From contig NZ_VFNV01000001.1 of NCBI RefSeq assembly GCF_006715765.1, positions 1,488,001-1,552,000 of the forward strand: 64,000 bases of DNA. The letters run 5' to 3'. The notes under the pieces were generated by a model. It ran no database searches, was not told the DNA's origin, and saw nothing but the letters and a program-made list of their open reading frames with translations. Positions 11,426 through 53,494 of the stretch are shown here, piece by piece. Numbering within the stretch: the first letter of the stretch is position 1; every line of letters begins with the position of its first letter. This stretch comes from Rarobacter incanus (GTDB lineage Bacteria; Actinomycetota; Actinomycetes; Actinomycetales; Cellulomonadaceae). Made by a program: the position numbers and the translations under genes.

Positions 11426-11797
11426 CCCGGATCCGTACCCGGATCCGTACCAGGGTCCGTGCCGGGATCAGTCCCAGGGTCCGTACCAGGATCCGTACCC
11501 GTGTCAGTACCAGGATCCGTGCCAGGATCCGTACCAGGATCCGTACCGGGATCCGTACCGGGATCCGTACCAGGATCCGTACCGGGATCCGTACCCGTGT
11601 CAGTACCAGGGTCCGTACCCGGATCAGTACCCGGATCAGTCCCCGGATCAGTACCCGGATCAGTCCCCGGATCAGTACCCGGATCAGTCCCCGGATCAGT
11701 ACCAGGATCAGTCCCCGGATCAGTCCCCGGATCAGTCCCCGGATCAGTACCCGGATCAGTCCCCGGATCAGTACCGGGATCCGTACCAGGGTCCGTT
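11426..11797. repeat. 12-bp minisatellite encoding (TDPG)n, about 31 units
   Basis: About 31 tandem units of a 12-bp sequence. On the minus strand each codes TDPG, with two TDTG variants. Unit variants such as GGATCCGTACCC and GGATCAGTCCCC occur in blocks, a sign of slipped-strand duplication. The unit length is a multiple of three, so copy changes keep the frame. The opposite strand is also open (GSVP repeats), but that is a by-product. Confidence 0.95.
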
Positions 11798-16721: not shown

Positions 16722-16991
16722 GGTCTCGATACGCGCGCTTCGCGCGCACTCGACCAGCGGGCCGGGGGACTTCGCTGATCGAGTGCGCCGCAGGCGCATA
16801 TCGAGATCAACCAAAGAGCGGGCGCGGTCTCGATACGCGCGCTTCGCGCGCACTCGACCAGCGGGGACAGCACGCCACTCGACCAGCGGGCCGGGGGACT
16901 TCGCTGATCGAGTGCGCCGCAGGCGCTTATCGAGATCAACCAGAGAGCGGGCGCGGTCTCGATACGCGCGCTTCGCGCGCACTCGACCAGC
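16722..16991. repeat. array of alternating palindromic repeats
   Basis: Three copies of GGTCTCGATACGCGCGCTTC...CACTCGACCAGC (from 16722, 16825 and 16954) alternate with two inverted relatives GATCGAGTGCGCCGCAGGCG...TATCGAGATCAACC (from 16778 and 16907). Each direct unit has an internal GCGCG-CTT-CGCGC hairpin and neighbouring units can pair with each other. The array occupies most of the gene-free stretch 16612-17137, between the divergent metF and sbp genes. Confidence 0.9.
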
Positions 16992-31737: not shown

Positions 31738-31888
31738 GTCCCAATCCCCTCTCCTCTCTCGCGTACCGTCCATGCCTGTTTTCTACAGTCGCGACGCGCG
31801 CCACGACCCACCGGGGCCCCGCCTGTGGATAACTCTTCGGCGTCACCGGGTCGGTTTAGGGTGGTGTCAACGAAGACAAGGAGGCGTC

Positions 31889-33022
31889 ATGAGGTTTATC
31901 GCGACCGCGGATTGGCAGTTGGGCATGACGGCGCGCTATCTTTCCGACGAGGCCCGCCCGCGCTATCACCAGGCGCGCTTGGACGCGGTGCGTCGCATCG
32001 GGGAACTGGCGCGCGACCGCGACGCCGCGTTCGTGGTGGTTGGCGGCGACGTGTTCGAACACAACCAACTCGACCGAGCGATCGTCTCGCGCGCCTTCGA
32101 GGCCCTGCGCGGCTTCACCGTCCCCGTGGTGCTGGTCCCGGGCAATCACGACCCACTCGACGCAGGGTCGATCTACCGATCCCCCGCATTTACGTCCGCC
32201 TGCCCCGCAAACGTTATCGTCGCGACCGGGCCTCGTCCCTTCTCGGTGGTTCCCGGAGCGAGCATTGTCGCCGCTCCGTGGTCCTCCAAGCGGCCGACCT
32301 CGGACCTGGTCGCCGACGCACTCGCCCCGCTCGAACCGCGCCCTGACGGCCAGGTGCGGGTGCTGGTGGGGCACGGTGCGGTGGCATCCCTGAACCCGGA
32401 CGCGTCCTCGCTCGCGGCAATAGACGACACCGCCCTTGCGGCTGCCGCCGACTCGGGGGTGATCGACTTTGCGGTACTCGGGGACCGGCACAGCACCACG
32501 CAGGTGGCACCCCGCATTTGGTATCCGGGGACGCCCGAGGTGACGGCGCGACGGGAGGTGGAACCCGGCAATGTGCTGGTGGTGGACGTGGATCCGGCCT
32601 CTCGCAGCGCGGATGTCGAGGTGGTACGGGTCGGGACGTGGCGATTCGTGACGCTGCAGCGCACTCTTGCAGAAGTGGGCGACGTGGACCAGCTGGGACG
32701 CGACCTCGATGCGATGCCCGCGAAGGAACGCACGGGCGTGTGGCTGGCATTGACAGGAGCACTCACCGCGGCGGCCGCCGCGCAGCTCGAATCCGTCATC
32801 GATCGTGCGCGGGACGTTTTCGCGCGGCTCGACGTGTGGGATAGCCATAGCGATCTGGCCGTGATACCCGATGACCATGATTTCACCGACATGGGATTGA
32901 GTGGCTTCGCTGACGATGCGGTTCGCGAATTGGCGGCGTTGGCGCTTTCGGATAGTGAATTGGCCCGTACCGCGCAGGACGCCCTTTCCGTTTTGTACCG
33001 AATCGAGCAGGCACAATCATGA
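31889..33022 (+). CDS. SbcD/Mre11-like DNA repair exonuclease
   Basis: A 377-aa metallophosphoesterase. The ATG at 31889 follows AAGGAGG. Metal-binding motifs of the Mre11 family are present: ATADWQLG (the first Asp and a Gln in place of the usual His), VGGDVFEHN, VPGNHDPL and GHGAV. In the late GDRH motif (LGDRHSTTQV) the final His is retained. The gene overlaps the next by ATGA, the standard nuclease-ATPase arrangement. It resembles YhaO as much as SbcD. Confidence 0.88.
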   Translation: MRFIATADWQLGMTARYLSDEARPRYHQARLDAVRRIGELARDRDAAFVVVGGDVFEHNQLDRAIVSRAFEALRGFTVPVVLVPGNHDPLDAGSIYRSPAFTSACPANVIVATGPRPFSVVPGASIVAAPWSSKRPTSDLVADALAPLEPRPDGQVRVLVGHGAVASLNPDASSLAAIDDTALAAAADSGVIDFAVLGDRHSTTQVAPRIWYPGTPEVTARREVEPGNVLVVDVDPASRSADVEVVRVGTWRFVTLQRTLAEVGDVDQLGRDLDAMPAKERTGVWLALTGALTAAAAAQLESVIDRARDVFARLDVWDSHSDLAVIPDDHDFTDMGLSGFADDAVRELAALALSDSELARTAQDALSVLYRIEQAQS

Positions 33023-51090: not shown

Positions 51091-51639
51091 ATGGCTTGCA
51101 TGTTTGCTATCTTGCACACCTCCGAAGGTGACATCCGCGTAGAACTCTTCGAAAACCACGCGCCCCGAACGGTGGCGAATTTCACCGGCCTGGCGCAGGG
51201 CACCACCGAATGGGCCGACCCGCGCACGGGCCAAAAGCGCACCGACCCCCTGTACCAGGACGTGATCTTCCACCGCATCATTCCCGGCTTCATGATTCAG
51301 GGCGGCGACCCGCTGGGAACCGGAACCGGTGGACCCGGCTACAAATTCGATGACGAGATCCACCCCGAACTCCAGTTCAGTGAGCCCTACCTGCTTGCCA
51401 TGGCCAACGCGGGTAAGCAACTCAACCCGATCACCGGCCGCCCCACGGGAACGAACGGTTCGCAGTTCTTCATCACGGTCGCGCCAACAACGTGGCTGAA
51501 CGGGAAACACACCATCTTCGGGAAGGTCGCTGACCAGGAATCCAAGGATGTTGTAGACGCCATCGCCGCAGTGCCCACGGGCCCCGGCGACCGCCCCCTG
51601 ACGGACGTCGTCATCAAATCGATTTCAATCGAACAATGA
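51091..51639 (+). CDS. cyclophilin-type peptidyl-prolyl isomerase
   Basis: A protein of 182 aa with the cyclophilin core: FHRIIPGFMIQGGDP (catalytic Arg and Phe), GSQFFIT and LNGKHTIFGKV. No signal peptide, so it is cytoplasmic. Two in-frame ATGs (51091 and 51100) are possible; neither has a clear ribosome site. It starts the ppiA-rhomboid-crgA stretch found near the origin of many actinobacteria, and it overlaps the rhomboid gene by 4 nt. Confidence 0.93.
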   Translation: MACMFAILHTSEGDIRVELFENHAPRTVANFTGLAQGTTEWADPRTGQKRTDPLYQDVIFHRIIPGFMIQGGDPLGTGTGGPGYKFDDEIHPELQFSEPYLLAMANAGKQLNPITGRPTGTNGSQFFITVAPTTWLNGKHTIFGKVADQESKDVVDAIAAVPTGPGDRPLTDVVIKSISIEQ

Positions 51640-52481
51640 GCACCCCTCCCACCGGCGCACCCGCGCGCTGCGCCAACCACCCCGACCGGAATGCGTACGT
51701 GCGCTGCCAGCGCTGCGGCCGCCCCATTTGCGGGGAGTGCGCGCGCAACGCGCCGGTGGGAGTCCACTGTCCTTCGTGCGCCGGAGACGGGCACCGAAAT
51801 GCGGCGCGCTCGATCCTGCGCTCCGACACGCCGGTCGCAACCTACACGATCATGGCACTATGCGTTCTGGCATACGGATCGCAGTTCATTCTCGGATCCG
51901 GCTGGACGAGCCGCTGGATGTTCGCCCCCGTAGTCGGCGACATCGAACCGTGGCGGTTCATCACAGCGGGATTCATGCACGGCGGAATCCTGCACCTGGC
52001 AATGAACATGATTGCCCTGTGGTCCGTTGGGATGTTCTTGGAGCGCTCACTGGGGCGGACGCGCTTCGTATCGCTTTACCTCCTATCGATTCTCGGGGGA
52101 TCGGTCGGCGTGTTGCTCCTGGCGTCGCCGACGTCCGAAAGCTGGTACATCGGCGTACTGGGTGCGTCCGGCGGGGTCTTCGGCCTCTTCGCCGCGGTCG
52201 TGTTCGAACTCAAGCGGCTCGGACAAAACGCGCAGTCAATGCTCGCCATCATCGGCATCAACCTGGTCTTTGGTTTCGTGTTCTCCGGCATCTCCTGGCA
52301 GGGACACGTCGGCGGCCTGGTGACCGGCGCGCTGCTCGGGTTCATTTACTCGCGCCTCAGCTCGCCGTCGCAAAAGCTGGCATCGTATGCGGCGACGGCC
52401 GGGGTGGCCGTCTTGCTGATCGCGCTTGCGGTGATCCGATACAGCACGGCCGGGGCGGTCGCCCTCAGCACCGTAGGCTGA
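51636..52481 (+). CDS. rhomboid-family intramembrane serine protease with N-terminal zinc finger
   Basis: A 281-aa protein. An N-terminal Cys/His finger (CANHPDRNAYVRCQRCGRPIC in part, then CPSC; about residues 12-48) precedes six membrane segments. The rhomboid catalytic dyad is present: Ser in GASGGVFG and His in GHVGGL; the HGGILHLAMNM loop supplies the conserved His/Asn. Substrates are unknown. Confidence 0.93.
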   Translation: MSTPPTGAPARCANHPDRNAYVRCQRCGRPICGECARNAPVGVHCPSCAGDGHRNAARSILRSDTPVATYTIMALCVLAYGSQFILGSGWTSRWMFAPVVGDIEPWRFITAGFMHGGILHLAMNMIALWSVGMFLERSLGRTRFVSLYLLSILGGSVGVLLLASPTSESWYIGVLGASGGVFGLFAAVVFELKRLGQNAQSMLAIIGINLVFGFVFSGISWQGHVGGLVTGALLGFIYSRLSSPSQKLASYAATAGVAVLLIALAVIRYSTAGAVALSTVG

Positions 52482-52512: not shown

Positions 52513-52758
52513 GCCCGCCCCGCCCCTTGCTGGGGCCGAGCCAATATCGCTAGCCCCCCAAGGCGCCCACGCGCCCGCCCCGCCCCTTGTTGGGGCCGGG
52601 CCAATATCGCTAGCCCCCCAAGGCGCCCACGCGCCCGCCCCGCCCCTTGTTGGGGCCGGGCCAATATCGCTAGCCCCCCAAGGCGCCCACGCGCCCGCCC
52701 CGCCCCTTGTTGGGGCCGGGCCAATATCGCTAGCCCCCAAAGGCGCCCACGCGCCCGC
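52513..52758. repeat. 60-bp tandem repeat, about four copies
   Basis: A 60-bp unit, repeated with only a few changes, begins GCCCGCCCCGCCCC and contains CCCCTTGTTGGGG (a 4-bp stem) and GGGCCAATATCGCTAGCCCC. It starts 32 bp after the rhomboid stop. Frames are open in both directions, but there is no start codon with a ribosome site. Confidence 0.9.
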
Positions 52759-52795
52759 GTTCCTAGATGACACATTCGTAATTACAAGCGTGTAG

Positions 52796-52867
52796 TTATC
52801 CACACGAGTTTCCACCGGTGTGGATATGTCCACCGGGAAACACAGGGCTGTGCACAAGTTATCCACA
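52796..52867. other. DnaA-box cluster
   Basis: Two perfect DnaA boxes TTATCCACA (52796-52804 and 52859-52867) flank near-matches TGTGGATAT (52819-52827, inverted), ATGTCCACC (52826-52834) and TGTGCACAA (52849-52857, inverted). The stretch just before it, 52770-52800, is AT-rich for this genome. The boxes are seen directly; their role (origin, DnaA titration or dnaA-controlled promoter) is open, and no dnaA or dnaN lies in the window. Confidence 0.65.
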
Positions 52868-53037: not shown

Positions 53038-53076
53038 GAAGGCGGGGTGGGAGCCCAAAGCTCCCACCCCGCCTTC
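53038..53076. terminator. 17-bp perfect hairpin after crgA
   Basis: GAAGGCGGGGTGGGAGC and GCTCCCACCCCGCCTTC pair fully around a 5-nt loop, 23 bp after the crgA stop on the minus strand. Confidence 0.85.
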
Positions 53077-53098: not shown

Positions 53099-53494
53099 CT
53101 ACTTGTACTGGGTAGACAGGACGCCCCCGCCCAGGATCATCCCGAACCCGATCGCCAGGTTCCACTGCCCAATGTGCGGAATGGGCAGGTTGAAAGTCAG
53201 CAGGCCCGAGGTCACGTAGAACACGACGATCCAGACCAGGCCGCCGATCAGCAGGGTGAGCATCGTCGGTACCAACCAGACGGGGTTTTCAGAGGTCTTG
53301 ATGTTGGCGTGCGGCTTCTTCTTCCGCTGGTTCTGCGCGACTGCCTTTTGCCGCGCCTTCGTCAAGCCCGCCGCTGACGACTCAGTGACGGCCCCGTCAC
53401 TGACCTCGGCCGACTCCTCAACGCTGTCGGCGTCATCGACAACAGCAGCCTCTTCGGGCTCTTCGGATTCGTGGGATAGTTTTGCGCTCGGCAC
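53099..53494 (-). CDS. crgA: cell division protein CrgA
   Basis: A protein of about 131 aa from a GTG at 53494 (AGGA 8 nt upstream, start MPSAK as in other CrgA proteins); a TTG at 53512 is an alternative. An acidic N-terminal half (about 1-55) precedes two membrane segments (about 78-100 and 110-130) with the family PVWLVPTMLTLLIGG and LPIPHIGQWNLAIGFG signatures. CrgA links FtsZ/FtsQ with FtsI and PBPA at the septum. The acidic extension is longer than in mycobacteria. It diverges from the DUF881 gene. Confidence 0.92.
   Translation of the reverse strand: MPSAKLSHESEEPEEAAVVDDADSVEESAEVSDGAVTESSAAGLTKARQKAVAQNQRKKKPHANIKTSENPVWLVPTMLTLLIGGLVWIVVFYVTSGLLTFNLPIPHIGQWNLAIGFGMILGGGVLSTQYK

What the first reader, a model, noticed from the sequence alone, without database searches (positions are those of the whole stretch)
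52796..52867. DnaA-box cluster next to crgA, outside dnaA-dnaN
Two perfect TTATCCACA boxes and three near-matches fall in 72 bp, preceded by AT-rich DNA and a 60-bp tandem repeat. The flanking genes (ppiA, crgA, pknB block) lie near the origin in other actinobacteria. This could be a displaced origin element, a DnaA titration site or a DnaA-controlled promoter.
Basis: partly seen in the sequence, partly recalled or inferred. Interest (0 to 1): 0.62.

Follow-up and report, generated by a model that had tools for sequence, protein, structure and literature searches.

The report
Conserved DnaA-box element beside crgA
A short DNA element next to the cell-division gene crgA, carrying a fixed arrangement of binding sites for the replication starter protein DnaA, is found near the replication origin in most of the actinobacterial families sampled and is probably a brake or reset switch for replication rather than an origin.

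Summary
The DnaA boxes are real: two perfect TTATCCACA plus weaker boxes, in the gap between the convergent genes rhomboid and crgA. They are not a displaced origin: dnaA lies 51 kb away and the GC-skew minimum falls at the dnaA-dnaN junction. The second perfect box and the 60-bp repeats were not found in genus relatives.

A box trio of this kind occurs downstream of crgA in 128 of 174 actinobacterial genomes (34 of 40 families); reversed motif and shuffles gave 0 of 174. In the window's own genome the trio pattern occurs three times: here, at dnaA-dnaN and upstream of dnaA. In M. tuberculosis and M. smegmatis the corresponding intergenic region binds DnaA experimentally (PMC7738170), but was reported to have no obvious correspondence in other bacterial species. 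The correspondence appears to be class-wide. Best reading: an origin-proximal DnaA-regulating site (titration or reset), not a promoter. What it does to DnaA, and what binds the palindrome, is unknown.

The parts
52782..52795 (.). palindrome TTACAAGCGTGTAG (core ACAnnnnTGT, 52784-52793), 2 bp outside box III
   Evidence: core within 6 bp of a box in 63 of 174 genomes, mirror control 2 of 174; composite box+palindrome pattern occurs once in the whole own genome, at this site; one variable position in the 3-way genus alignment
52796..52804 (+). DnaA box III of the trio, perfect TTATCCACA
52808..52816 (+). DnaA box II of the trio, weak (GTTTCCACC; TCCAC core kept in the genus)
52819..52827 (-). 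DnaA box I of the trio (ATATCCACA), head-to-head with II
52849..52857 (-). additional weak DnaA box TTGTGCACA, not part of the conserved trio
   Evidence: not conserved
52859..52867 (+). second perfect DnaA box TTATCCACA; not conserved in the two genus relatives aligned
52513..52758 (.). 4.1 copies of a 60-bp GC-rich tandem repeat; no sign that it belongs to the element
   Evidence: unit not found by blastn in the crgA loci of the three other genus genomes
53038..53076 (.). perfect 17-bp inverted repeat with 5-nt loop, probable terminator hairpin of the convergent gene pair (inferred; not among the hits of the terminator scan)
51636..52481 (+). rhomboid-family membrane protease gene, convergent with crgA
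   Evidence: Pfam PF01694
53099..53512 (-). crgA, cell-division protein CrgA
   Evidence: Pfam PF06781 above its cut-off

Best explanation
An origin-proximal regulatory site for DnaA, conserved across the class Actinomycetes. DnaA is expected to assemble on three boxes in a fixed geometry (I right-facing, II and III left-facing, start offsets 11+12 or 10+13 bp), about one helical turn apart, beside a second palindrome that a still unknown partner probably reads. Lying near oriC, it is copied soon after initiation; the two copies would then hold or reset DnaA and delay the next initiation (datA- or DnaA-box-cluster-like control). Shown here: the boxes, the geometry, its conservation, its position, and that it is not the origin. 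Shown by others in mycobacteria: DnaA binding at the corresponding intergenic region. Inferred: DnaA binding in this organism, the titration/reset function, the partner protein.
For: Two or more boxes within 60 bp in the 350 bp downstream of crgA in 136 of 174 genomes; reversed motif 7 of 174, 20 shuffle rounds mean 0.5 and maximum 3, distal stretch of the same loci 4 of 168. Trio in the 600 bp downstream in 128 of 174 genomes and 34 of 40 families; reversed motif 0, five shuffle rounds 0, four wrong spacings 0 or 1. Named genomes: cluster 45 of 55 (39 of the 55 are Streptomyces, all 39 with a cluster), trio 44 of 55. In the own genome the 11+12 trio pattern (up to 2 mismatches) occurs at three places, this site, dnaA-dnaN and rpmH-dnaA, control 0; no trio in 19 sampled 10-kb stretches. 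Near oriC in 78 genomes measured: 9 to 178 kb, median 23 kb, 67 of 78 within 60 kb. Convergent position. PMC7738170: DnaA enriched at oriC, Rv0010c-Rv0011c, dnaB upstream, Rv3843c-RVnc0040 and rpmH-dnaA in M. tuberculosis DNA, homologues of the same five in M. smegmatis ChIP-seq, gel shift at Rv0010c-Rv0011c. One sentence of PMC4585315 says clusters near oriC in S. coelicolor and B. subtilis can repress untimely initiation.
Against: No DnaA binding or replication data were found for this organism. 38 of 174 lack a cluster in the 350 bp (some of these have it farther off, e.g. G003, G006, G014, G030), and genus g9 of the own family is without one in 6 of 6. The palindrome directly outside box III is present in 56 of 174 only; in family f8 it stands on the other side of the trio, 0 of 9 next to III. 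Box II is weak here, and R. faecitabidus (G001) fails the trio threshold. The palindrome-box stretch also scores as a terminator-like hairpin on the - strand (52806-52789; 4 such hits in the region, 1.8 expected), so an RNA role is not excluded. Function in mycobacteria is left undecided by its authors. The trio was defined after looking at these genomes, and 74 of the 174 belong to one family.
Confidence: 0.58

Rival explanations
1. DARS-like reactivation site: the head-to-head boxes I and II make bound ADP-DnaA release its ADP, so the site promotes initiation instead of restraining it.
For: Same order and direction of boxes as E. coli DARS1 and DARS2, both of which read as 0+, 14-, 26-; [quoted passage not shown] The trio was found at the crgA site in 17 of 18 genomes but in the dnaA-dnaN gap in 3 of 20, so it is mostly not an oriC arrangement.
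Against: Boxes I and II are 10-12 bp apart, not 14; with I-II 13-15 and II-III 11-12 only 1 of 174 matches. It lies near oriC; DARS1 and DARS2 lie far from oriC (recalled). A trio is also found upstream of dnaA in 11 of 20, where autoregulation is the simpler role.
Confidence: 0.17
2. The palindrome is the main functional part: a site for a transcription, nucleoid or segregation protein, with DnaA as co-factor.
For: Palindrome at fixed distance from a box; the composite also occurs upstream of nrdR in other families, 15 of 20 further sites fetched. A paper reports the regulator HigA2 binding at the M. tuberculosis Rv0010c-Rv0011c DnaA site (PMC11205783, passages).
Against: Boxes are found more widely (136 of 174) than the palindrome core (90 of 174). 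No protein known to me reads ACACnnGTGT; this was not searched systematically.
Confidence: 0.12
3. DnaA-controlled promoter.
For: DnaA is a transcription regulator elsewhere; [quoted passage not shown]
Against: In 134 of 134 genomes with a rhomboid hit, the own included, the neighbours converge. No sigma-70-type promoter-like hit in the gap (the scan does not cover other promoter types). In M. tuberculosis dnaA mutants neither flanking gene changed expression.
Confidence: 0.07
4. Displaced or second replication origin.
For: Boxes closer to consensus than in the dnaA-dnaN gap of the same genome; AT-richer stretch next to them (39% GC).
Against: GC-skew minimum at the dnaA-dnaN junction and genome-wide sign pattern; skew is negative on both sides of the site.
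Confidence: 0.03
5. Chance cluster or relic.
For: Weakness of box II here; absence in some relatives.
Against: Conserved geometry with zero matches in reversed-motif and shuffle controls; footprint in the genus alignment, 39 of 47 columns invariant.
Confidence: 0.01

Closest known systems
Rv0010c-Rv0011c DnaA site of Mycobacterium tuberculosis and its M. smegmatis homologue (PMC7738170)
   Same: Gap next to crgA (Rv0011c = crgA is recalled), near oriC, cluster of DnaA-box-like sequences and a short palindrome. A family in my set that I take for Mycobacterium and kin (f8, inferred) has a trio in 9 of 9 and a strict palindrome in 8 of 9.
   Different: There the other neighbour is Rv0010c, not a convergent rhomboid. 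In f8 the palindrome stands on the box I side, here on the box III side. The authors read their palindrome as two DnaA-box-like sequences; that it is the ACAnnnnTGT palindrome is my inference. DnaA binding is shown there, not here.
S. coelicolor DnaA-box clusters near oriC (Smulczyk-Krawczyszyn 2006; paper not held, names H69, H24, D78 recalled)
   Same: Origin-proximal DnaA-box clusters in an actinobacterium that can repress untimely initiation (one sentence of PMC4585315). All 39 named Streptomyces loci have a cluster downstream of crgA.
   Different: Whether one of the published clusters is the crgA site could not be checked; that H69 might be is a recalled guess from cosmid names.
E. coli DARS1 and DARS2
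   Same: Three boxes, first head-to-head with the second, third in tandem with the second.
   Different: I-II offset 14 instead of 10-12; IHF/Fis sites not looked for; other chromosomal position (recalled).
E. coli datA
   Same: Non-origin DnaA-box cluster near oriC in a gap between genes.
   Different: No trio of either geometry; datA needs IHF; here an unrelated palindrome.

Membership tests
Chromosomal origin oriC | GC-skew minimum at the site | tested here: not met
   minimum at 1591625, 51 kb away; 19 samples agree
Chromosomal origin oriC | next to dnaA/dnaN | tested here: not met
   dnaA at 1592215-1593561, dnaN starting at about 1591804; site at 1540780-1540827
Actinobacterial crgA-proximal DnaA site (type: Rv0010c-Rv0011c) | cluster of DnaA boxes in the gap downstream of crgA | tested here: met
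Actinobacterial crgA-proximal DnaA site (type: Rv0010c-Rv0011c) | short palindrome next to the boxes | tested here: met
   52782-52795; identity with the palindrome described in PMC7738170 is inferred
Actinobacterial crgA-proximal DnaA site (type: Rv0010c-Rv0011c) | DnaA binding | not testable with these tools
   published for mycobacteria only
DARS (DnaA-reactivating sequence) | boxes I and II head-to-head, III tandem with II | tested here: met
DARS (DnaA-reactivating sequence) | I-II offset 14, II-III 12 as in both E. coli DARSs | tested here: not met
   11 and 12 here
DARS (DnaA-reactivating sequence) | stimulates ADP release from DnaA | not testable with these tools
   needs purified protein
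datA | IHF-dependent stimulation of DnaA-ATP hydrolysis | not testable with these tools
   needs protein; an IHF site was not searched for
DnaA-box cluster / titration site (S. coelicolor, B. subtilis) | origin-proximal box cluster outside oriC | tested here: met
   51 kb from dnaA; densest box cluster in 184 kb
DnaA-box cluster / titration site (S. coelicolor, B. subtilis) | deletion causes early or extra initiation | not testable with these tools
   experiment needed

The most novel reading that the evidence does not exclude
Actinomycetes share one ancient DnaA control element downstream of crgA, the counterpart of datA/DARS in a group for which I found none defined: a head-to-head box trio on which DnaA changes its nucleotide state, gated by an unknown protein that reads the adjoining ACACnnGTGT palindrome. 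The little-understood mycobacterial DnaA site would then be one instance of a general switch that ties initiation to a fixed locus beside a division gene, and the same palindrome upstream of nrdR would tie it to nucleotide supply.
Probability: 0.22. Interest if true: 0.82.

Novelty: new variant of a known kind. Interest (0 to 1): 0.62.

Why it matters
How actinobacteria keep initiation to once per cycle is poorly understood (my general knowledge). [quoted passage not shown] The survey here suggests that it has one in most actinobacterial families sampled, with a fixed three-box geometry and often a companion palindrome. That turns an oddity of one genus into a conserved element that can be studied in harmless laboratory actinobacteria, and gives exact bases to mutate. 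My literature searches for a prior description of this conservation (open-licence papers only) found none, but the 2006 Streptomyces paper could not be read.

Tried and rejected
Displaced origin: rejected by GC skew. Promoter: disfavoured by convergent neighbours. The 60-bp repeat as part of the element: dropped, the unit is not found in the crgA loci of the other genus genomes. Full DARS membership: rejected on spacing. Palindrome as NrdR box, LexA box, parS or HigA2 site: compared only by eye with recalled consensus sequences and with the HigA2 motif in PMC11205783; none fits well. Upstream of nrdR the palindrome lies between putative NrdR boxes (recognised by eye), so that second class of composite hits may have its own cause. 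Terminator-like hit over the palindrome and box III on the - strand: noted, about as many such hits as shuffles can give, not pursued. An E. coli-style consensus alone (TTATCCACA, at most one mismatch) gives 10 hits in the window against 4.06 expected and was too blunt; TTNTCCACA was used instead. A strict 14-bp palindrome pattern (43 of 174) misses the own site by one base and was replaced by the 10-bp core with one flanking T or A. Selection: of 101 family genomes with crgA 74 were examined (30 best-scoring, 4 of the genus, 40 chosen to spread over genera); of the 189 other class genomes with crgA 100 were examined (30 best-scoring, 40 chosen by family, 30 that included the weakest CrgA scores); 3 of the 174 have under 300 bp of flank. 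crgA-dnaA distance: 78 genomes whose two places were listed on one contig; left out were nine more whose pair spans the end of a contig of unknown length, and rows that the capped lists did not show.

Full report
Observation. Weaker boxes lie at 52808 (+, two mismatches), 52819 (-) and 52849 (-). The 60-bp repeat (4.1 copies, 52513-52758) is real, and the 36 bp before the boxes are 39% GC against 65% for the window. Genes on either side are ppiA, a rhomboid, crgA, a DUF881 gene, a GATase (trpG/pabA type), a PASTA kinase and a penicillin-binding protein. The rhomboid ends at 52481 and crgA, on the other strand, at 53099: the boxes lie between two gene ends.

Not the origin. The window is bases 1488001-1552000 of a single-contig genome of 2,486,262 bp. 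Its genus group holds three other genomes; the element of one is identical to that of Rarobacter faecitabidus DSM 4813 and of another to that of Micrococcales bacterium KH10, so the organism is probably a Rarobacter. dnaA is at 1592215-1593561 and dnaN starts at about 1591804. The cumulative GC-skew minimum over 1448001-1632000 is at 1591625, just inside dnaN. In 19 sampled 10-kb stretches the skew is negative in all 9 between 422 kb and 1424 kb; of the other 10 nine are positive and one is about zero, as expected for an origin at dnaA and a terminus near 350 kb. Skew is negative on both sides of the crgA site.

Conservation. I collected the DNA downstream of crgA from 174 genomes, 74 of the own family and 100 of the class outside it. 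In the 350 bp downstream, a perfect TTNTCCACA box occurs in 128 of 174 (reversed motif 0, shuffle mean 0.7) and two or more boxes within 60 bp in 136 of 174 (reversed motif 7, shuffle mean 0.5 and maximum 3 in 20 rounds; distal stretch of the same loci 4 of 168). Of 55 named loci, 39 of them Streptomyces, 45 have such a cluster, including all 39 Streptomyces. Exceptions: genus g9 of the own family in 6 of 6, and single genomes elsewhere; some have the cluster beyond 350 bp.

Geometry. Box pairs are not randomly placed: right-left pairs peak at 23 bp (64 genomes) and at 10 and 11 bp (30 and 38), same-direction pairs at 12-13 bp, and left-right pairs are nearly absent. This resolves into a trio: I facing II head-to-head at 10-12 bp, III in tandem 12-13 bp beyond, read on either strand. 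Within 600 bp of crgA it is present in 128 of 174 genomes and 34 of 40 families; the reversed motif and five shuffle rounds give 0, four wrong spacings give 0 or 1. The commonest spacings are 11+12 (68) and 10+13 (43), so I to III is 23 bp in both. The trio was defined on these data, so the controls measure chance, not the choice of the rule; the named set (44 of 55) and the whole-genome search are partly independent checks.

Second motif. Next to the boxes lies a palindrome with core ACAnnnnTGT, most often 2 bp outside the TT edge of a box: 90 of 174 genomes have the core and 63 have it within 6 bp of a box, against 4 and 2 for the mirrored core. Directly outside box III it was found in 56 of 174; in family f8, which I take for Mycobacterium and kin, it stands on the other side. 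The combined pattern occurs once in the whole own genome, at 1540784-1540804, which is this site. In 197 class genomes it was found in 41, the backward control in 1. I fetched 20 of the matches that are not at crgA: 15 lie beside an nrdR gene, one upstream of dnaA (L283), and at four (L276, L286, L288, L289) the reading frame tested was not nrdR. In the alignment with two genus relatives 39 of 47 columns are invariant from the palindrome through the trio, window 52780-52826, while the rest, including the second perfect box, is not conserved.

Where else the trio occurs. In the 184 kb around the own origin there are three trios: this site, the dnaA-dnaN gap and the rpmH-dnaA gap. A whole-genome search with the 11+12 pattern and up to two mismatches returns the same three places and no control hit. 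In 30 genomes that search gave 32 matches in 19 genomes, 16 of the matches at crgA, 6 next to dnaA and 10 elsewhere, control 2 (places compared by hand). In 20 genomes other than the own the trio was found upstream of dnaA in 11 and in the dnaA-dnaN gap in 3; at crgA it was found in 17 of the 18 of these for which I held the DNA. So the trio is mainly a mark of the crgA site and the dnaA upstream region, less of oriC itself; the own genome, with one at oriC too, is not typical in that.

Link to experiment. PMC7738170 (abstract, section 9 and passages read) mapped DnaA on M. tuberculosis DNA in vitro and in M. smegmatis cells. [quoted passage not shown] Rv0011c is crgA (recalled). By neighbouring genes, three of the five correspond to the three trio places of the window's genome. 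The authors confirmed binding at Rv0010c-Rv0011c by gel shift, described a palindrome in that gap, made of two DnaA-box-like sequences, that is mutated repeatedly in clinical isolates, found longer cells and altered isoniazid survival in mutants, and left open whether the site titrates DnaA or helps nucleotide exchange. They saw no obvious correspondence in other bacterial species.

Mechanism. The most likely role is control of DnaA near the origin. The site is copied soon after initiation (crgA-dnaA distance 9 to 178 kb, median 23 kb, 78 genomes), it lies between convergent genes in the 134 of 174 genomes with a rhomboid hit, and in the own genome its boxes are somewhat closer to consensus than those at oriC. 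Passive titration or active inactivation (datA-like) fits best. The alternative, reactivation as in E. coli DARS, shares the box order; DARS1 and DARS2 both read 0+, 14-, 26-, while here it is 0+, 11-, 23-. Nothing here measures nucleotide state, so these remain inferences.

Verdict. It is a new variant of a known kind (DnaA-box clusters outside oriC).

Noticed in passing
L271-L275, L277-L282, L284, L285, L287, L290 (other actinobacterial families): A DnaA-like box plus ACAnnnnTGT palindrome lies just beside nrdR in 15 of 20 further sites fetched, apparently between tandem NrdR boxes, often with further TGTGGA repeats upstream: possible DnaA control of nrdR.
   Followed up: partly
G000:C1:1588375-1588467 and 1619299-1619464 (L034, L036): Further small DnaA-box clusters with 12-bp tandem spacing on both sides of the own dnaA locus.
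   Followed up: no
G000:C1:1728702-1728723: TTGTCCACA and TTATCCACA 13 bp apart in tandem, the only other pair of perfect TTRTCCACA boxes within 100 bp in the genome.
   Followed up: no
family f24: G224:C1:5500895, G159:C1:1829704, G274:C1:6425060: The same trio pattern at a third place, about 95 kb from dnaA in two of the three, in three genomes of one family.
   Followed up: no
G102:C12:177035-177055: Composite box+palindrome pattern about 260 bp upstream of the dnaA match.
   Followed up: no
window 11426-11787: 30 copies of a 12-bp repeat (CCCGGATCAGTA) near the 5' end of an 882-aa minus-strand reading frame.
   Followed up: no
window 16747-16991: Nearly two copies of a 129-bp repeat, 98% alike.
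   Followed up: no
family f31 (e.g. G163, G178, G226, G236, G266, G285): CrgA matches come as two tandem stretches, as if the CrgA domain were duplicated.
   Followed up: no
window 31824-31832: Third perfect TTATCCACA of the window, alone, within a reading frame listed at 31772-33022.
   Followed up: no
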